Shown here: positions 651-7,574 of the stretch, in pieces
Numbering within the stretch: the first letter of the stretch is position 1
How the letters are laid out: each line of letters begins with the position of its first letter
Source of the DNA: Pandoraea fibrosis
GTDB lineage: Bacteria > Pseudomonadota > Gammaproteobacteria > Burkholderiales > Burkholderiaceae
DNA length: 64,000 nucleotides
NCBI RefSeq assembly: GCF_000807775.2
Contig: NZ_CP047385.1
Coordinates: forward strand, 5,528,066 to 5,592,065
Reading direction: 5' to 3'
Translations under genes and position numbers: made by a program
The notes under the pieces: generated by a model
The model's input: the letters and a program-made list of their open reading frames with translations, nothing else
The model's database searches: none
What the model was told of the DNA's origin: nothing

Positions 651-1442
651 TCATACGCCTAACAACTCGTGCAGCACCGGCATCTTCGTCTCCAGCTCCT
701 GAGCGCCAAAGCGCTCCACGATCTTGCCGTGCTCCATCACATAGAAGCGATCGGCCAGCGGAGCCGCAAAACGGAAATTCTGTTCCACCATCACGATGGT
801 GTAGCCCCTCGCCTTGAGCGTGGTGATCATGCGCGCCAATGTCTGCACGATCACCGGTGCAAGACCTTCGGAGATCTCGTCGAGCAGCAACAGGTTGGCG
901 CCCGTGCGCAGAATGCGCGCCACGGCCAGCATTTGCTGCTCGCCACCCGACAGACGCGTGCCCTGACTGTGGCGCCGCTCCTTCAGGTTGGGGAACATGT
1001 CGTAGATCTCGTCGAGCGACATGCCGCGCCCACCGTCGTCGCGACGATTGCCGCTCATGCCGATATATGGCGGCAGCAGCAGGTTTTCCTCACATGACAG
1101 GCTCGCGAAAATACCGCGCTCTTCGGGGCAATAGCCCACGCCGTGATGCGCGACCTTGTACGTCGGCAAGTGAATGGTTTCTTCGCCGCCGATGCGGATC
1201 GACCCCTGACGCTGTCCGGTCAGGCCCATGATGGCGCGCAGTGTCGTGGTGCGTCCGGCGCCATTGCGCCCGAGCAGCGTGACGACTTCGCCACGCCCCA
1301 CCGTCAGGTCCACGCCGTGCAGGATGTGCGATTCGCCGTACCAGGCCTGAAGTCCTTCGACTTCGAGTGCCGGGATGTTCGCGTTGCCCTTGCCGTTACC
1401 GTTACCGTTGCCGCCCCCATTCCCGTACATAACCGTCCTCAC
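651..1442 (-). CDS. livF: Branched-chain amino-acid ABC transporter ATP-binding protein LivF
   Basis: Cytoplasmic ATPase subunit of a Liv-type importer. It has the Q-loop region, the ABC signature LSGGEQQ (within GTRLSGGEQQMLAVARIL) and Walker B LLLLDE. The Walker A is unusual: GRNGAGRTTT, with Arg where the nucleotide-binding Lys normally sits. The N-terminus holds a short Gly/Asn-rich run (GNGGGNGNGNGKGN) before the conserved ALEVEGLQAWYGESHILHGV. The GTG at 1442 overlaps the livG stop (GTGA), and an ATG at 1430 is an alternative start. About 263 residues, slightly long for LivF because of the Gly/Asn run. Co-transcribed with livG by overlap. Family assignment is firm; the substrate is inferred. 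Confidence 0.92.
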   Translation of the reverse strand: MRTVMYGNGGGNGNGNGKGNANIPALEVEGLQAWYGESHILHGVDLTVGRGEVVTLLGRNGAGRTTTLRAIMGLTGQRQGSIRIGGEETIHLPTYKVAHHGVGYCPEERGIFASLSCEENLLLPPYIGMSGNRRDDGGRGMSLDEIYDMFPNLKERRHSQGTRLSGGEQQMLAVARILRTGANLLLLDEISEGLAPVIVQTLARMITTLKARGYTIVMVEQNFRFAAPLADRFYVMEHGKIVERFGAQELETKMPVLHELLGV

Positions 1443-2218
1443 CCGTGGGCTCCCTGCATTTCACCGTCCGCGGTGCCCATATAGGCTTCCATCACCTGCG
1501 GATTCTTCGAGACTTCGTGATATGGCCCCTCGGCGAGCACCTCGCCGCGCTGAAGCACAGTGATGGTGTCGGAGATGCCCGCGATCACGTTCATGTTGTG
1601 CTCGACCATCAGGATCGTGCGGCCTGCCGACACCTTCTTGATGAGGGCTGTCACGCGATCGACGTCTTCGTGGCCCATGCCTTGCGTGGGTTCGTCGAGC
1701 AGCATTAGTTCGGGCTCCATAGCAAGCGTGGTTGCGATTTCGAGCGCGCGCTTGCGGCCGTATGGCAGCTCCACGGTCAGCGTATGGGCGAATTCGGTGA
1801 GACCGACCTCGGCGAGCAATGCCATCGCGCGTTCGTCGAGCTTGCGCAACGTGCGGCTGCTGCTCCAGAAGTGGAACGCGGTGCCCAGGTTGCGCTGCAG
1901 ACCGATGCGCACGTTCTCGAGCACGGTGAGGTGCGGGAACACGGCCGAGATCTGAAACGAACGGATGATGCCGCGTCGTGCAATTTGCGCAGGCGCTTCG
2001 CGGGTGATGTCGTCACCGTTGAAGGTAATCGTTCCCGCGCTGGGGACCAGGAACTTGGTGAGCAGGTTGAAGCAAGTGGTCTTGCCTGCGCCATTCGGTC
2101 CGATGAGTGCATGAATGGTGCCGCGCGCAACGCGCAGGTCGACCCCGTTCACGGCGGTGAAGCCACGAAACTCTTTCGTGAGTCCGCGGGTTTCGAGAAT
2201 GTAATCGTTGTTCGCCAT
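1439..2218 (-). CDS. livG: Branched-chain amino-acid ABC transporter ATP-binding protein LivG
   Basis: First ATPase subunit of the Liv-type importer, 259 residues. It begins MANNDYILETRGLTKEFRG and has Walker A GPNGAGKTTC and Walker B LMLLDEP. Its signature region is ELPYGRKRALEIA, the degenerate signature usual for LivG. The start at 2218 is chosen because AGGAG lies 4 to 8 bases upstream and the conserved domain starts immediately; the open frame continues 53 codons further up without family-like sequence. It overlaps livF by four bases. The permease genes livH and livM are not in the window, so either they lie to the left beyond the binding protein or this is a split locus. Confidence 0.93.
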   Translation of the reverse strand: MANNDYILETRGLTKEFRGFTAVNGVDLRVARGTIHALIGPNGAGKTTCFNLLTKFLVPSAGTITFNGDDITREAPAQIARRGIIRSFQISAVFPHLTVLENVRIGLQRNLGTAFHFWSSSRTLRKLDERAMALLAEVGLTEFAHTLTVELPYGRKRALEIATTLAMEPELMLLDEPTQGMGHEDVDRVTALIKKVSAGRTILMVEHNMNVIAGISDTITVLQRGEVLAEGPYHEVSKNPQVMEAYMGTADGEMQGAHG

Positions 2219-2820
2219 GTCTCCTGCCACATTCCTGGTTGGCGGTGCGAGGCAGGTATGCGCCACGGCACCATCGTCTGTGACAACCGCAAGGCAGGCA
2301 GATGACGCTCTGGTTTGCGTCGTCGGCGAGATGCCCCGCGTCCCGCACGTGGCGCCGAATTCTTGGTTCGGTCGCACATAGGGAATCGTTATTGTGTGTG
2401 GTTTGCTGCAACGCGATCATTGGGATTTGCACTTAGCTTCGCAGCCCCGGAAACACGCATGCTCACACGTGTTTCAGAACGTTCGGTCACATGCTTCATA
2501 GATGCCCGCAGCCCTTATGGCACAAGGCTTTTGCGGCACACGCAAATGCGCGGTCGATAGCTTTTTGCGATGAGCTTTCGTCGTTCGCGCAACCGACATT
2601 AGGTATTACTACGTAAGTTTTTGGCGACTTGTCCGGAATTCCGGAAGTCGCCATCGGCATTCCCGTTCGCTTTTTGACTTCGTCTTTTCGGTGCCGGGCC
2701 CAAATGCGGCAAGAAATCAGAAATTCTCCAAAGTCCTTTCCCCCATTCTCGTGCCACGATTTTTCAACCGCCATCGGCATGACAAGGTTGGCGTTCGGCT
2801 AACGATCCAGGGAGAGAAAA
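2219..2820. other. Intergenic region between livG and the PhyH operon
   Basis: About 600 bases without a convincing gene. Base composition drops in GC compared with the flanks, marking the left edge of the lower-GC island. It contains the dyad at 2623-2652 and a 12-base direct repeat, CGCCATCGGCAT, at about 2650 and again at about 2770. GGGAGAG just before 2821 serves as the ribosome binding site of the next gene. I could not assign a convincing -35/-10 pair. Confidence 0.5.
2623..2652. repeat. Imperfect 30-base dyad upstream of the PhyH operon
   Basis: The arms are GGCGACT and AGTCGCC, enclosing an inner palindrome TCCGGAATTCCGGA; a two-base bulge breaks perfect symmetry. No T-run follows on either strand, so it is more like an operator or a protected hairpin than a terminator. 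It lies about 170 bp upstream of the dioxygenase start. Function is inferred from position only. Confidence 0.45.
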
Positions 2821-3597
2821 ATGAGCCAGGAATTCGTTTACCAGTTCGATATCAATGGCTATATCGTTATTCCCGCAGCGATACCTCAACCTCATCTTCA
2901 ACGCCTGCAAAAATACTGGTGCAAGAACCTTATCGGGCACCCACTACACGACGTAAATTTCGACTGGGGCGACGATTGGCGCGGCCTTATCGATATTGAA
3001 TCCGTCTATTCGTTCCTGGATATCGTCTACAGATCGAAATTTCGACTGGACCATATGTTTTGTGCCGATGAGCGCTTCGTCAGCAGCGGCGGCCAACTGC
3101 ACCATCAGGCAGACATGTTCGACGAAGGCATCTATTACTGGGTGCGAAATCGACGCATTCACAGCGGCCTTGTCGCGGTTCAATACGCAATCTCGGACAT
3201 CGGGGCAACGACGAACCACTTCTGCTGCATTCCCGGGTCACATCGGGCCAACTTCCCGGTTCCGGACCGGTACCGAAACCTCTCGGAAAACCTGTTGCTA
3301 CGCCACGTCTATCTCCAAGCCGGGGACGCCGTGGTCTTCTCTGAAGCACTCGTTCACGGAACCTTCAGAGTCGCAAACTCAGGCCCGAGGCGAAGCGTGT
3401 TCGCTAGGTACATGAACAATCACTCCTACTTTAGAAGACCTCCTGCACATCGCGATATCGCCTCCCTCCCCCCCACGCCAAACCATTCCGCATCATCTGA
3501 AGCACAAATCTTCTCAACCAGCGATTTGACGCCCAGGCAGCGGCAACTGGTCGTTGAACCTGCCTACGCGCGGGGCCACGCACCCGTAAGGAGCTAA
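2821..3597 (+). CDS. Phytanoyl-CoA dioxygenase (PhyH)-like protein
   Basis: 258 residues, of the PhyH branch of Fe(II)/2-oxoglutarate oxygenases. Recognisable family features are RNRRIHSGLVAVQYAISD (109-126), the strongly PhyH-like FCCIPGSHRANFPVP (134-148), a distal His in EALVHGT (H179) and a candidate 2-oxoglutarate-binding Arg in GPRRSVFARY (R190/R191). The proximal metal motif is odd: the region reads LHHQADMF (93-100), and neither His is followed two residues later by Asp or Glu. The start ATG has GGGAGAG nearby. It is the first gene of a tight three-gene operon, six bases before the NUDIX-methyltransferase gene. Substrate unknown; hydroxylation, halogenation-like chemistry or loss of activity are all possible. 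Confidence 0.75.
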   Translation: MSQEFVYQFDINGYIVIPAAIPQPHLQRLQKYWCKNLIGHPLHDVNFDWGDDWRGLIDIESVYSFLDIVYRSKFRLDHMFCADERFVSSGGQLHHQADMFDEGIYYWVRNRRIHSGLVAVQYAISDIGATTNHFCCIPGSHRANFPVPDRYRNLSENLLLRHVYLQAGDAVVFSEALVHGTFRVANSGPRRSVFARYMNNHSYFRRPPAHRDIASLPPTPNHSASSEAQIFSTSDLTPRQRQLVVEPAYARGHAPVRS

Positions 3598-3603
3598 ACG
3601 AAT

Positions 3604-4818
3604 ATGGATCCAGTCAGCGTTAAAGCTGTCGTTCGGGGGCCTCAAGGAATCCTCTTCCTCAAAAATCCACGCAACGAACTTGAGTTGCCAGGAGGCAGAC
3701 CCGACCATGGAGAAACGCTTGAATCCGCCTTGACTCGGGAAATGGAGGAAGAATGCGGCCTCAGCATCACCTCGGCGACTTACATGGGAAGTCAATCCTG
3801 CGAAATCGTACCTGGGAGGAGCGTTCTGCTCGTTTTCTTTTACTGCACGCTCCCTGAAGGTCGCCTCGTACTGAGCGACGAGCATACCGCCTACGAATGG
3901 GTCGATCTCGATGCCGAGCCGCCCCACAACATGCCGAGCGTCTATTGGGAATTCTGCACTCAGCTGAGAAGTGGCCACAATGCGTCGGAATACGCTGGCG
4001 CGGCACGGCCCGAATACCCCCTGCACACCGGAGAAGCAGACAGGCAACGGCTTATGGTCACTGCGCAGGTGTACAACGCCGCCACGACCGAGTTCCTACG
4101 AAAGTTCTTGCCGAAAACCGGCCGCATCCTTGAGGTCGGCTGCGGCCACGGACAAATCGCTCAATGGCTTGCCTCCAACGTCCCCGACGCCACTGTCATC
4201 GGTCTCGACAACGATGCTGACCAAATCTCCCTCGCCAGATCGGCCGCTACAGCACACGGAATCACCAATCTTTCCTTTCGAGTCGGCGATCTGAATGATC
4301 TGGCAAGTCTCTCTCAATTCGAAAAAAAATTCGAACTCATAACCTGCCGGTTTACCCTCCTGCATATCGGGCAACGCCGCCCCGTTATAGAAGCACTACT
4401 CGATCTCTTAACGCCGTCCGGCATTTTGGTCGTCGAAGAGCCATCCCTCGGAAGCTTATTCTGCATGCCCCCCGTGGCAGGTTTCGAGCAAGCCAATGCG
4501 GCAATCAGCGCATATGGTGAAAGCAGAGGCGTCGACTACGACTGCATCGAAGATATTTGGTCAATCGTCACGAAGATGAACGTCCAAATCAGGGATGCCA
4601 GATTCAGTCAACCCACCGTCTGGAAAAAGGAGCACAAGGCGCTCGTCAAACTGTCATTTCAGCAGTTTTCGCCACAGCTCATTGCGCATGGAATACTCGA
4701 AAAGAATCAGGCGAGCCGTATCGAGCAGTCACTTGATAACGAGTACATGGACGACCTTGTGATTTCCGGAGGATTGCGAACGTTGCAGGTTGCCCTGTCG
4801 GTCAAGGGGCGGCGGTGA
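3604..4818 (+). CDS. NUDIX hydrolase-SAM methyltransferase fusion protein
   Basis: 404 residues with two domains. The N-terminal NUDIX domain (about 1-125) has a complete NUDIX box at 31-53 (GRPDHGE, then REMEEECGL), so it should hydrolyse a nucleoside-diphosphate-linked substrate using Mg2+. The C-terminal domain (about 145-400) is a class I SAM-dependent methyltransferase with motif I ILEVGCGHG (175-183), an acidic residue after VIGLD and a later ILVVEEP strand. The fusion suggests that one small molecule or nucleotide derivative is processed by both activities. It starts six bases after the dioxygenase stop, and its stop shares one base with the next ATG, so all three genes are probably co-translated. 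The substrate is not identifiable. Confidence 0.8.
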   Translation: MDPVSVKAVVRGPQGILFLKNPRNELELPGGRPDHGETLESALTREMEEECGLSITSATYMGSQSCEIVPGRSVLLVFFYCTLPEGRLVLSDEHTAYEWVDLDAEPPHNMPSVYWEFCTQLRSGHNASEYAGAARPEYPLHTGEADRQRLMVTAQVYNAATTEFLRKFLPKTGRILEVGCGHGQIAQWLASNVPDATVIGLDNDADQISLARSAATAHGITNLSFRVGDLNDLASLSQFEKKFELITCRFTLLHIGQRRPVIEALLDLLTPSGILVVEEPSLGSLFCMPPVAGFEQANAAISAYGESRGVDYDCIEDIWSIVTKMNVQIRDARFSQPTVWKKEHKALVKLSFQQFSPQLIAHGILEKNQASRIEQSLDNEYMDDLVISGGLRTLQVALSVKGRR

Positions 4819-5657
4819 TGAGATTCAATGTCGAGTCGATTTCGCAAGGCATTTATCAGGATATTCCGTGTGAAGACGTCGTCGGATACCTTCAGCGTGA
4901 GCGCTCAATTCTTGCATGGGCCATTGACGGCGCATCCACGCTCACCGAATCGCCATTCGCGACTTTCGATGGCATCTCAGATGCGGGATGGTTTGCACGA
5001 AGACTGGCCGACTTGCTGCGACAGCTCGATACCGCCGCCTTCTGCAAATCGACACTGCGTGATGGCCTGAATATGCTTCGACAAGCGTATTGTGCCGCGT
5101 CGAAACGCATCCCGCCCCTGGAAGAATGGCCGGTGGCAGCAGCCACCATCGTCGAAATAGATTGCAGCGTTGGCACAACGTTGACGCTCTCCATCTATCG
5201 TTATGCGGACTGCTTTGACCTGATTCATCAGGGGGCGCTCCCCCCTTCAAACCGAGACAAACCATCGGCGCCACAATGTCCGTCCTATGACCCATGGAAG
5301 CCCTGCTCAGGTTTCCGAGGACAACCCCTCGAGCAATTACGACAACGAAGGCGCCAACAGCAGCGAAACGAATTGAGTACCGCACTCACGTTAAACCCGA
5401 TAAGTGCCCTGAACGCCACGGAAGCACATCTGACAATCGGCACGCCTGCTCACATTCTCCTTGGCACCGATGGCCTCGCACGTGTATGGGAAACATACCA
5501 TCTGATGCCCCGGGAGCAAGCCATACCATTGATCGCAAGAACCGGGTTATCCACACTGCTCAAGATCCTGAGAGATCACGAGGCAACGATCCCTGCCGGC
5601 CAGACGAGCGACAAAAGAAGAGACGACGCTAGCGGCATCTCCATCTCTCTTCTTTAG
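4818..5657 (+). CDS. PP2C-like protein phosphatase domain protein
   Basis: 279 residues from ATG 4818, which overlaps the upstream stop as TGATG; a GTG at 4815 is also possible. PP2C-type features are WAIDGAS (34-40, metal-binding Asp-Gly), LLGTDGLARV near the C-terminal third and a late RRDDASG with the usual metal-binding Asp pair. The middle section is poorly conserved and charged. Predicted to be a cytoplasmic Mn/Mg-dependent phosphatase, on a protein or on a small phosphorylated molecule made by the neighbours. Lower GC than the flanking housekeeping genes suggests the three-gene unit was acquired together. Confidence 0.7.
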   Translation: MRFNVESISQGIYQDIPCEDVVGYLQRERSILAWAIDGASTLTESPFATFDGISDAGWFARRLADLLRQLDTAAFCKSTLRDGLNMLRQAYCAASKRIPPLEEWPVAAATIVEIDCSVGTTLTLSIYRYADCFDLIHQGALPPSNRDKPSAPQCPSYDPWKPCSGFRGQPLEQLRQRRRQQQRNELSTALTLNPISALNATEAHLTIGTPAHILLGTDGLARVWETYHLMPREQAIPLIARTGLSTLLKILRDHEATIPAGQTSDKRRDDASGISISLL

Positions 5658-5701
5658 AAACCAGCGTCGCCGTCGTCGAGCAACCTACCCTCGCACCTTC
5701 A

Positions 5702-7336
5702 TCACCGCCTGGCTTTGCGTGCCGCACGAATCATGTCGCTCGCGCGCTCGGCAATCATGATCGTCGGCGAGTTCGTGTTGCCCGAGGTGATCACCGGCAT
5801 GACGGACGCATCGACCACTCGCAGGTTCTGCACACCACGCACGCGCAACTGCGCGTCGACAACAGCATCGGGATCGTCGGCGCGACCCATGCGGCAGGTG
5901 CCGACCGGATGGAAGATCGTCGTGCCAATCTCGCCCGCCGCCCGCATCAGGTCTTCATCGCTCTGAAACGCGGGGCCCGGCAGATATTCACGCGGCTCGT
6001 AACGCGCAAATGCGGGTGCGCCCACGATACGACGCGTCAACTTGATGGCATCCGCCGCCACGCGCAAGTCCGCTTGCGTCGACAGATAGTGCGGTGCGAT
6101 GTTCGGCGCAACGCGTGCATCCGGCGATGTCAGATGCACATTGCCGCGCGACGTCGGTCGCAGATTGCACACCGACGCCGTGAACGCATTGAATTTGTGC
6201 AACGGCTCGCCGAAGCGATCGAGCGATAACGGCTGTACGTGATATTCGAGATCGGGACGCGTCATGTCGTCGCGACTGCGGGCGAACGCTCCCAATTGCG
6301 AGGGCGCCATGCTCATCGGCCCGCGCTGCGCGAACGCGTATTGCATGCCGATCTTGAGCTTGCCGAGCCAACTGTTGGCCGTGAGATTCAGTGTCGTGAC
6401 GCCGCGCAGTTTGTACACCGTGCGCAATTGCAGATGGTCCTGAAGGTTCTCGCCAACCCCCGGCAGATCGGCGACGACATCGATACCGAAACCCCGCAGA
6501 CGCTCGCCATTGCCGATGCCCGAAACCTCGAGCAAATGCGGCGAATTCACCGCGCCCGCCGCAAGAATCACCTCGGCGAGCGCAAGCGCCGTGAAGTCTT
6601 CGTTGCCGCCACGATAGGCCACGCCAGTGCAACGCGTGCCCTCGAACATCAGGCGGCTCACACTCGCGCCCGTGATCACCGTCAGATTCGGTCGCTGCGA
6701 AGCCGGGCGCAAGAAGCCTTTCGCCGCACTCCAGCGCACACCGCGTCGCTGGTTCACTTCGAAATAGCCAATGCCGAAGTTGTCACCTCGATTGAAGTCG
6801 TCGGTCTTGGGAATGCCGACCTGCTCGGCGGCGTCGGCGAACGAGTCGAGCACTCGCCACGACAGACGCTGTTTCTCGACGCGCCACTCGCCACCGCTTC
6901 CGTGAAACTCGGTGCTGCCCTTGTAGTGATCCTCGCTGCGCTTGAACAGCGGCAGCACGTTGTCCCACCGCCAGCCGTCGTCGCCCGTCGCGTCGGCCCA
7001 CACGTCGTAGTCCTCGCGCTGACCGCGCATATAGATCATGCCGTTGATCGACGAACTCCCGCCCAGCACCCGGCCACGCGGATACGCAAGCGAGCGGCCG
7101 CCGAGCCCCGCCTCCGGCTGCGTGCGATACAACCAGTCCGTGCGCGGATTGCCGATGCAATAGAGATAGCCGACGGGGATGTGAATCCAGTGGTAGTCGT
7201 CCTTGCCGCCCGCTTCGAGCAACAGCACGTTGACGTCGGGGTCCTGCGTGAGCCGATTGGCCAGCACGCATCCGGCCGAGCCGGCCCCCACGATGATGTA
7301 ATCGAAGCTTTCCTGCTTCGCTGCCTGCTTGCTCAT
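5702..7336 (-). CDS. GMC-family FAD oxidoreductase (choline dehydrogenase-like)
   Basis: 544 residues. The N-terminal FAD motif is DYIIVGAGSAGCVLANRL. GMC signature 1 is GRVLGGSSSINGMIYMRG and signature 2 is GAVNSPHLLEVSGIG. The C-terminal end has HPVGTCRMG and the NTNSPTIMIAERA motif with the catalytic His/Asn pair. It oxidises an alcohol to an aldehyde, passing electrons to FAD and then probably to the respiratory chain or oxygen. Start MSKQAAKQ at 7336 is preferred over the ten-codon longer frame because the FAD fold begins soon after and GGGA lies just upstream. It is divergent from a LysR gene, its likely regulator. Choline is only one candidate substrate; no betaine aldehyde dehydrogenase gene is adjacent. 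Confidence 0.87.
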   Translation of the reverse strand: MSKQAAKQESFDYIIVGAGSAGCVLANRLTQDPDVNVLLLEAGGKDDYHWIHIPVGYLYCIGNPRTDWLYRTQPEAGLGGRSLAYPRGRVLGGSSSINGMIYMRGQREDYDVWADATGDDGWRWDNVLPLFKRSEDHYKGSTEFHGSGGEWRVEKQRLSWRVLDSFADAAEQVGIPKTDDFNRGDNFGIGYFEVNQRRGVRWSAAKGFLRPASQRPNLTVITGASVSRLMFEGTRCTGVAYRGGNEDFTALALAEVILAAGAVNSPHLLEVSGIGNGERLRGFGIDVVADLPGVGENLQDHLQLRTVYKLRGVTTLNLTANSWLGKLKIGMQYAFAQRGPMSMAPSQLGAFARSRDDMTRPDLEYHVQPLSLDRFGEPLHKFNAFTASVCNLRPTSRGNVHLTSPDARVAPNIAPHYLSTQADLRVAADAIKLTRRIVGAPAFARYEPREYLPGPAFQSDEDLMRAAGEIGTTIFHPVGTCRMGRADDPDAVVDAQLRVRGVQNLRVVDASVMPVITSGNTNSPTIMIAERASDMIRAARKARR

Positions 7337-7574
7337 TCCCGCATGTCTCCGTCGATGGCGCGGCACTCGCCATGGTGCGGTGCCGGCTCTGGTGCGGCAC
7401 CCGACTGGGGTGGACTGTCGCCCACCGCTCCGGGTTCATTTTGTCCGCGACGCCGCAATATCAGCATCGCTCATGTTGATTCCCCCGACTCACGCCTGCC
7501 CGCTATTTGCCCGGCAGCACGTACCCCGGCAACACCAAGCGTACTGCGGGACACCGAGGCAAGCCAATGAGAAA

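What the first reader, a model, noticed from the sequence alone, without database searches (positions are those of the whole stretch)
2821..5657. Compact dioxygenase / NUDIX-methyltransferase / PP2C operon in a lower-GC island
Seen: three genes with spacings of six bases and a one-base overlap, base composition lower than the flanks, and no transposase nearby. Known: PhyH proteins oxidise carbon centres, NUDIX enzymes cleave nucleoside-diphosphate linkages, class I methyltransferases add methyl groups, PP2C enzymes remove phosphate. Inferred: together they could build or remodel a modified nucleotide-linked small molecule, or act as a signalling or defence module; I know of no described system with this trio.
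Basis: partly seen in the sequence, partly recalled or inferred. Interest (0 to 1): 0.75.

Follow-up and report, generated by a model that had tools for sequence, protein, structure and literature searches.

The report
Mobile oxygenase, NUDIX-methyltransferase, PP2C gene cassette
A small mobile block of three bacterial genes, carrying four enzyme activities that usually trim and decorate small phosphate-bearing molecules, is real and kept together in several genera, but its molecule is not known.

Summary
The trio is real. It lies in an insert (about 2652-5701) at an intergenic cargo site of a Pandoraea chromosome; close relatives have a short site there. Trios also occur in other Pandoraea, Cupriavidus (some near a DUF3363 gene) and Stenotrophomonas. 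Among 398 genomes of the family, all 9 with the PhyH have NUDIX and PP2C genes beside it; 5 of 14 with a PP2C orthologue lack partners nearby. The PP2C label, invisible to Pfam, holds by model and conserved residues. The PhyH is nearest HygX of hygromycin B synthesis and lacks Asp at the H-x-D position. Remote PP2C relatives lie in amino-sugar clusters, one with a NUDIX gene, but others near sigma-factor or unrelated genes. Best reading (0.42): a mobile small-molecule tailoring or detoxification cassette for a phosphorylated or nucleotide-linked substrate, still unknown. PP2C outlives its partners in decayed loci, so self-protection stays open. I saw no description in the listings.

The parts
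2652..5701 (.). Insert (islet), 54.8% GC, in place of the short site of related Pandoraea genomes; edges approximate, since the empty sites hold some tens of bases there that do not align (87 in L087)
   Evidence: Of 11 site segments compared, 8 match the window up to 2646-2652 and again from 5702-5712; L089 and L092 up to 2621/2624 and from 5715; divergent L107 only in pieces. No repeats of 14 bp or more in 2500-5800
2821..3597 (+). PhyH-superfamily oxygenase, 258 aa, HygX-like
   Evidence: Pfam PF05721 9.2e-10; AF2 pLDDT 86.6; PDB profile hit HygX 8e-17; Foldseek rows 1-16 are HygX
3604..4818 (+). NUDIX hydrolase - class I SAM methyltransferase fusion, 404 aa
   Evidence: Pfam; G31, E37, R45, E46, E49, E50 of the NUDIX box and G179, G181, G183 of methyltransferase motif I invariant in 16 of 16 aligned sequences
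3610..3948 (+). NUDIX domain (residues 3-115)
   Evidence: PF00293 1.3e-14
4120..4449 (+). Methyltransferase core (residues 173-282)
   Evidence: PF13847 1e-21
4815..5657 (+). PP2C/PPM-fold phosphatase, 280 aa from GTG (ATG at 4818)
1442..2377 (-). Left flank: branched-chain amino-acid type ABC ATPase (conserved part begins at 2212)
5702..7366 (-). Right flank: GMC oxidoreductase, convergent with the trio

Best explanation
A horizontally mobile, four-activity small-molecule tailoring or detoxification cassette. The PhyH (HygX-like Fe/2-oxoglutarate oxygenase) oxidises a carbon of a sugar-like or nucleoside substrate; the NUDIX domain splits a nucleoside-diphosphate or related phosphoanhydride link; the fused methyltransferase adds a methyl group; the PP2C, acting as a small-molecule phosphatase, removes the remaining phosphate and is the core member. 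There is no scaffold-building or transport gene in the block, so the substrate must come from host metabolism or the surroundings. Shown here: gene set, folds or families, conserved catalytic residues of NUDIX, methyltransferase and PP2C, linkage, insertion at a cargo site, purifying selection. Inferred: substrate class, order of steps, and that PP2C acts on a small molecule and not on a protein.
For: Gene order kept in Pandoraea, Cupriavidus and Stenotrophomonas; 9 of 9 PhyH genomes in a draw of 398. dN/dS 0.11, 0.15 and 0.20 for PhyH, NUDIX-MT and PP2C against the G018 copy. PhyH nearest solved structure is HygX by profile and by Foldseek. Remote PP2C relatives sit in a Cupriavidus-type operon NUDIX - NTP_transferase - epimerase - DegT aminotransferase - 339 aa - PP2C - MATE (L135 by Pfam; L133 has ORFs in the same order, with Pfam run only on its DegT) and, in another genome of the class (L143), with DegT, Gfo/Idh/MocA and sulfotransferase-like genes, and on sphingomonad plasmids beside anhydroMurNAc kinase, NagA and SIS genes. 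NUDIX, monophosphatase and methyltransferase together are described for puromycin/cystocin (passages of PMC11641026) and a tailoring NUDIX for tubercidin (passages of PMC6112128).
Against: No substrate is tested. The amino-sugar contexts belong to remote relatives: the L135 PP2C is 21% identical to ours, and the sphingomonad copies were found with the L135 and L143 proteins as queries, while our own PP2C found only two Cupriavidus records among the plasmids. Other remote relatives lie beside unrelated genes or, in 4 of 6 actinobacterial plasmid regions viewed, behind a sigma-factor gene, which suits a regulatory phosphatase. PP2C lacks the partners nearby in 5 of 14 carriers, so it cannot depend on them there. 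The Cupriavidus operon's NUDIX is only weakly similar to ours (profile 1.9e-5 and 4.3e-5).
Confidence: 0.42

Rival explanations
1. The PP2C is a protein phosphatase of a partner-switch or stress pathway, and the oxygenase and NUDIX-methyltransferase make or remove the signal that it answers to.
For: Closest folds are protein phosphatases (PppA, PstP, Stp1). Remote relatives follow sigma-factor genes in 4 of 6 actinobacterial plasmid regions viewed.
Against: No kinase, anti-sigma or STAS gene was noticed in the trio loci, but only selected neighbours were scanned with Pfam; the rest are ORF listings. The sigma-paired relatives are remote.
Confidence: 0.22
2. The PhyH and NUDIX-methyltransferase make an antimetabolite, and PP2C is the producer's self-protection, which persists as an orphan immunity gene after the rest is lost.
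For: PP2C is intact in decayed loci: G012 and G022 (PP2C only), the C. necator C39 plasmid (PhyH cut to 207 aa, only a short NUDIX remnant), G019 (PhyH interrupted by a DDE_3 transposase gene, NUDIX-MT intact), G786 (methyltransferase absent). Pandoraea solos nest among trio carriers, and a Pseudoxanthomonas-like solo pairs with the Stenotrophomonas trio. The puromycin NUDIX Pur7 is listed among resistance-mediating enzymes (passage of PMC11641026).
Against: PP2C is the last gene and next to the stable flank, so 5'-side losses would spare it anyway. G717 keeps only a PP2C fragment. No exporter gene lies in the insert; the nearest one seen, an MFS gene, is 5.5 kb away behind four other genes. 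The pairing with Stenotrophomonas is not strongly supported (90/87) and the inner order around the Pandoraea solos is open.
Confidence: 0.14
3. Anti-phage or anti-plasmid defence module.
For: Sporadic distribution, mobile carriage in Cupriavidus, site shared with other cargo. NUDIX-methyltransferase domain-level PADLOC hits.
Against: PADLOC finds nothing for PhyH or PP2C; no phage-record match for PP2C or NUDIX-MT and none in viral contigs for NUDIX-MT; none of the four domain families is a nuclease, NADase or pore-former.
Confidence: 0.1
4. Three genes with unrelated roles that merely travel together.
For: PP2C is often alone; the methyltransferase domain can be absent.
Against: PhyH without NUDIX and PP2C was not seen in the draw of 398 genomes (0 of 9); order and tight spacing are kept across genera.
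Confidence: 0.08

Closest known systems
Puromycin / cystocin tailoring genes (Pur7 NUDIX, Pur3 monophosphatase, methyltransferases); tubercidin NUDIX TubG
   Same: NUDIX step, phosphate removal and methylation in one cluster (passages of PMC11641026); tailoring NUDIX (passages of PMC6112128)
   Different: Those clusters build the nucleoside (and tubercidin's carries an MFS transporter gene); here there is no scaffold gene, NUDIX and methyltransferase are fused, the phosphatase is PP2C-fold and the oxidising enzyme is a PhyH-type oxygenase. Homology to these proteins was not tested
HygX, 2-oxoglutarate oxygenase of hygromycin B synthesis (4xc9, 4xca, 4xcb, 4zpi)
   Same: Best profile match (8e-17) and best Foldseek match of the PhyH; in the profile alignment both have His without Asp two residues on
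Cupriavidus-type amino-sugar operon with NUDIX, PP2C and MATE genes (L133, L135)
   Same: A NUDIX gene and a member of the same wider PP2C family in one operon
   Different: PP2C 21% identical to ours; has nucleotidyltransferase, epimerase, aminotransferase and exporter genes; no PhyH or fused methyltransferase match in the 15-kb stretches
Bacterial PPM/PP2C phosphatases (PppA, PstP, Stp1, tPphA)
   Same: Fold and metal-binding acidic residues
   Different: No Pfam PP2C match; 7-16% identity in the structural alignments shown

Membership tests
PP2C / PPM phosphatase | PP2C fold | tested here: met
PP2C / PPM phosphatase | Conserved metal-binding Asp residues (motifs recalled: ED, DG, DG, DD) | tested here: met
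   E20, D21, D38, G39, D219, G220 invariant; D270, D271 in at least 90% of 20 rows, one row being truncated
PP2C / PPM phosphatase | Phosphatase activity | not testable with these tools
   Needs protein
NUDIX hydrolase | G-x5-E-x7-R-E-U-x-E-E-x-G-U box | tested here: met
   Box present; G31, E37, R45, E46, E49, E50 invariant in 16 rows; PF00293
Class I SAM methyltransferase | Rossmann SAM motif I (G-x-G-x-G) | tested here: met
   G179, G181, G183 invariant in 16 rows; PF13847
PhyH Fe/2-oxoglutarate oxygenases | Oxygenase fold of the family | tested here: met
PhyH Fe/2-oxoglutarate oxygenases | Canonical H-x-D ... H iron ligands and Arg for 2-oxoglutarate (motif recalled) | tested here: inconclusive
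   H94, H179, R190 in 33 of 33 rows; at two residues after H94: Q 11, G 10, E 6, H 2, F 2, R 1, P 1, Asp 0 of 33. The profile alignment to human PhyH is low-confidence there and sets its HQD a few residues further on; no coordinates were available
Nucleoside antibiotic (puromycin-type) cluster | Nucleoside-building genes in the cluster | tested here: not met
   None in the insert or among seven Pfam-scanned flanking genes
Known anti-phage systems (PADLOC-DB 2.0.0) | Matches to the proteins of a listed system | tested here: inconclusive
   Only domain-level hits for NUDIX-MT; none for PhyH and PP2C. A library of 2023
Integrative conjugative element cargo | Linked conjugation genes | tested here: not met
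   None among seven flanking genes here. In Cupriavidus a DUF3363 gene lies next to or near the cassette in the four loci compared, L016, L018, L046, L047; G667 was not compared

The most novel reading that the evidence does not exclude
A mobile antimetabolite module of Gram-negative bacteria: a HygX-type oxygenase without the usual carboxylate iron ligand plus a NUDIX-methyltransferase turn a common phosphorylated or nucleotide-linked metabolite into a toxic or signalling compound, and the PP2C is a small-molecule phosphatase that gives immunity, persisting as an orphan resistance gene after the producing genes are lost.
Probability: 0.12. Interest if true: 0.8.

Novelty: new variant of a known kind. 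Interest (0 to 1): 0.5.

Why it matters
PP2C proteins are usually filed as protein phosphatases. A PP2C tied to a NUDIX-methyltransferase and a HygX-like oxygenase, with remote relatives in amino-sugar clusters, gives a testable case for a small-molecule PP2C. The block is short (3 kb, three genes), also present in Cupriavidus, and naturally occurs in partial forms, so each activity's contribution can be tested directly.

Tried and rejected
Defence reading: PADLOC, phage records and viral contigs gave little support. Known RNA over 2000-6000: no Rfam match up to E 0.1. Promoter scan of 2200-5800: one site, inside the PP2C gene, fewer than in shuffles (mean 2.2). Repeats of the insert: none. 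PP2C against PDB sequences: two chance-level hits, E 0.28. Genome-contig scan with the PP2C alone found nothing; with the NUDIX-MT alignment it gave 20 loci, 3 matched over the whole protein (L015, L016, L017) and the rest over the NUDIX part only. In the plasmid records NUDIX-MT matched 196 records but only 1 over at least 80% of its length; PP2C and PhyH matched 2 each, all Cupriavidus. Stand-alone NUDIX relatives in six Pandoraea genomes, B. cenocepacia and Dyella share only the NUDIX domain and showed no trio partner in the stretches checked; I treated them as ordinary homologues.

The apparent MT-PP2C fusion P0032 was not used: both ends are truncated, so an artefact is likely. Halogenase-type iron site: considered because H-x-G occurs in Fe/2OG halogenases (recalled), but HygX, an oxygenase, has HGG too, so it is not argued. 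That the HygX paper reports a variant metal coordination is recalled; that paper is not held.

Literature: one search found 0 papers with all five terms; one search listed 20 of 25 papers with at least four of five terms; one search listed 2; one search listed 10 of 62. I saw titles and starts of abstracts there, and passages only of PMC11796379 (a NUDIX gene changed in expression, not relevant), PMC6112128, PMC11641026, PMC8987622, PMC8748661 and PMC8234114. The library holds open-licence papers only.

Limits: the NUDIX-MT protein search scored only the 7993 best candidates, so divergent partners may be missed, for instance in Burkholderia ambifaria, where PhyH and PP2C hits share a contig length and no NUDIX-MT was listed. 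Neighbours of PhyH relatives in B. oklahomensis and Caballeronia were not examined. Co-occurrence counts come from even draws, not a census. Genus and family names of G handles are inferred from named hits with the same sequences, coordinates or contig lengths.
Full report

Composition and insertion. The trio is 54.8% GC in a 62.9% window, with GC3 of 57-63% against 78-80% for three flanking genes. Names of close protein matches place the genome in Pandoraea (for example P0004, P0009-P0011). I examined the site between the ABC ATPase and the GMC gene in 32 genomes of the genus. Two have no ABC match at the threshold used. Seven carry the trio or its PP2C. The other 23 genomes gave 24 stretches: 16 with a gap of 452-650 bases, 2 divergent ones with 308, 5 with a longer gap of 1.67-2.24 kb, and 1 without the GMC gene. 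Of 11 site segments aligned to the window, 8 match up to 2646-2652 and again from 5702-5712, so about 3.05 kb stand where the empty site has some tens of unmatched bases (87 in L087). Other cargo at the site includes a nitroreductase-domain protein (L095) and an MFS protein (L096). No repeats mark the ends.

Distribution. In Pandoraea four genomes have the whole trio (window, G018, G008, G031); G019 has the PhyH interrupted by a DDE_3 transposase gene, with NUDIX-MT and PP2C open; G012 and G022 have PP2C only. In Cupriavidus, trios lie on plasmid pBB1 of C. necator N-1 (with an OrfB_IS605/TNB-type gene between NUDIX-MT and PP2C), in L016 (= G633) and in G667; L018 (= G786) has a 121-aa NUDIX without methyltransferase; the C39 plasmid has a 207-aa PhyH, an RRXRR/HNH gene, a short NUDIX remnant, an intact PP2C and a stray PP2C N-terminal piece. 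A DUF3363 gene lies next to or near PP2C in the four loci compared (L016, L018, L046, L047), with a RovC-type gene in three of them, which suggests carriage by conjugative elements (inference). Stenotrophomonas rhizophila L017 has the trio.

Linkage counts. In 398 genomes drawn from the family, the PhyH (E up to 1e-20) is in 9. All 9 have a PP2C orthologue and a NUDIX gene beside the PhyH, in 8 of them fused to the methyltransferase (G742 read through L046, the record with the same coordinates). In G019 the PhyH itself is broken, and in G742 a TnpB-type gene separates PP2C. PP2C gives 18 of 398: 14 orthologues (E below 1e-100), 3 distant, 1 fragment. Five of the 14 lack the partners nearby: G012, G022 and three Burkholderia-like genomes. 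An even draw of 369 genomes of the class gave 2, one of them the window's own. A wider PP2C profile gave 16 of 398 in the phylum draw: the window's own, one close (G1062, PP2C without partners among the neighbouring ORFs listed) and 14 distant. PhyH relatives in B. oklahomensis and Caballeronia were listed but their neighbours were not examined.

Evolution. Against G018, dN/dS is 0.11 (PhyH), 0.15 (NUDIX-MT) and 0.20 (PP2C), against 0.02 for the ABC and GMC flanks: purifying but looser selection. In a 24-row PP2C tree the Pandoraea solos lie in a five-row group with three trio carriers (98/99, inner order open), and a Pseudoxanthomonas-like solo pairs with the Stenotrophomonas trio (90/87, below the program's strong-support mark). 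This suggests, without proving, loss of the partners more than once with PP2C kept. Position is a caveat: PP2C is the last gene, next to the stable flank, and G717 keeps only a PP2C fragment.

Where relatives of the PP2C live. In L135 (Cupriavidus-type) a remote PP2C sits in the order NUDIX, NTP_transferase, epimerase, DegT aminotransferase (seen whole in L133), a 339-aa protein, PP2C, MATE exporter. In L143, a genome of the same class, it sits with a DegT-type protein, a Gfo/Idh/MocA oxidoreductase and a sulfotransferase-like protein. On two sphingomonad plasmids it lies beside anhydro-N-acetylmuramic acid kinase, NagA and SIS genes, and in L176 beside BadF-type and NagA-type genes. Against this, 4 of 6 actinobacterial plasmid regions viewed have it behind a sigma-factor gene, and other copies in the phylum draw have unrelated neighbours (by eye). 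The plasmid relatives were found with the L135 and L143 proteins, not with ours. The sugar theme is a lead from remote relatives, not proof.

Mechanism. NUDIX, phosphatase and methyltransferase together recall puromycin and cystocin tailoring (Pur7, Pur3; passages read in PMC11641026, where Pur7 is also counted among resistance-mediating enzymes) and the tailoring NUDIX TubG of tubercidin (passages of PMC6112128). The cassette has no scaffold-building or transport gene, so it should act on a molecule made or met elsewhere. I commit to small-molecule tailoring or detoxification, with 0.42 confidence. Two Cupriavidus trios also have a DUF218-type gene upstream: directly before the PhyH in L140, about 0.95 kb before it in L141 (Pfam on the L140 copy), a possible fourth partner.

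Novelty. Each enzyme is of a known family; I saw no description of the combination in the listings (open-licence library only). I rate it a new variant of a known kind, interest 0.5.

Noticed in passing
L133, L135 (Cupriavidus-type genomes): Remote PP2C relative inside an amino-sugar type operon with NUDIX, nucleotidyltransferase, epimerase, DegT aminotransferase (whole only in L133) and MATE exporter genes; I did not look for it in print.
   Followed up: partly
window 2212-5702 and the same site in L095, L096, L104, L013, L014: The ABC-GMC intergenic stretch is a cargo site: other Pandoraea genomes hold a nitroreductase-domain protein, an MFS protein, or PP2C plus an MFS-like ORF there.
   Followed up: partly
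L140:6096-6713, L141:11845-12459: A DUF218-domain protein gene (Pfam on L140; L141 copy 79% identical) lies upstream of the PhyH in two Cupriavidus trios; possible fourth member.
   Followed up: partly
L046:8859-10094, L047:8393-9796, L141:12488-13864: TnpB-like (OrfB_IS605/TNB) and RRXRR/HNH (IscB-like, label recalled) genes are inserted in or near three Cupriavidus copies of the cassette.
   Followed up: no
L162, L163, L164, L166, L167, L168: On six actinobacterial plasmids a remote PP2C relative follows a sigma-factor gene (4) or an unnamed gene of similar size (2); two of the PP2C genes are annotated 'integrase'.
   Followed up: no
L177, L178: PP2C-family gene beside what looks by eye like a 2-oxoacid dehydrogenase E2 gene, recalling (from memory) the PP2C phosphatase of human BCKDH.
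   Followed up: no
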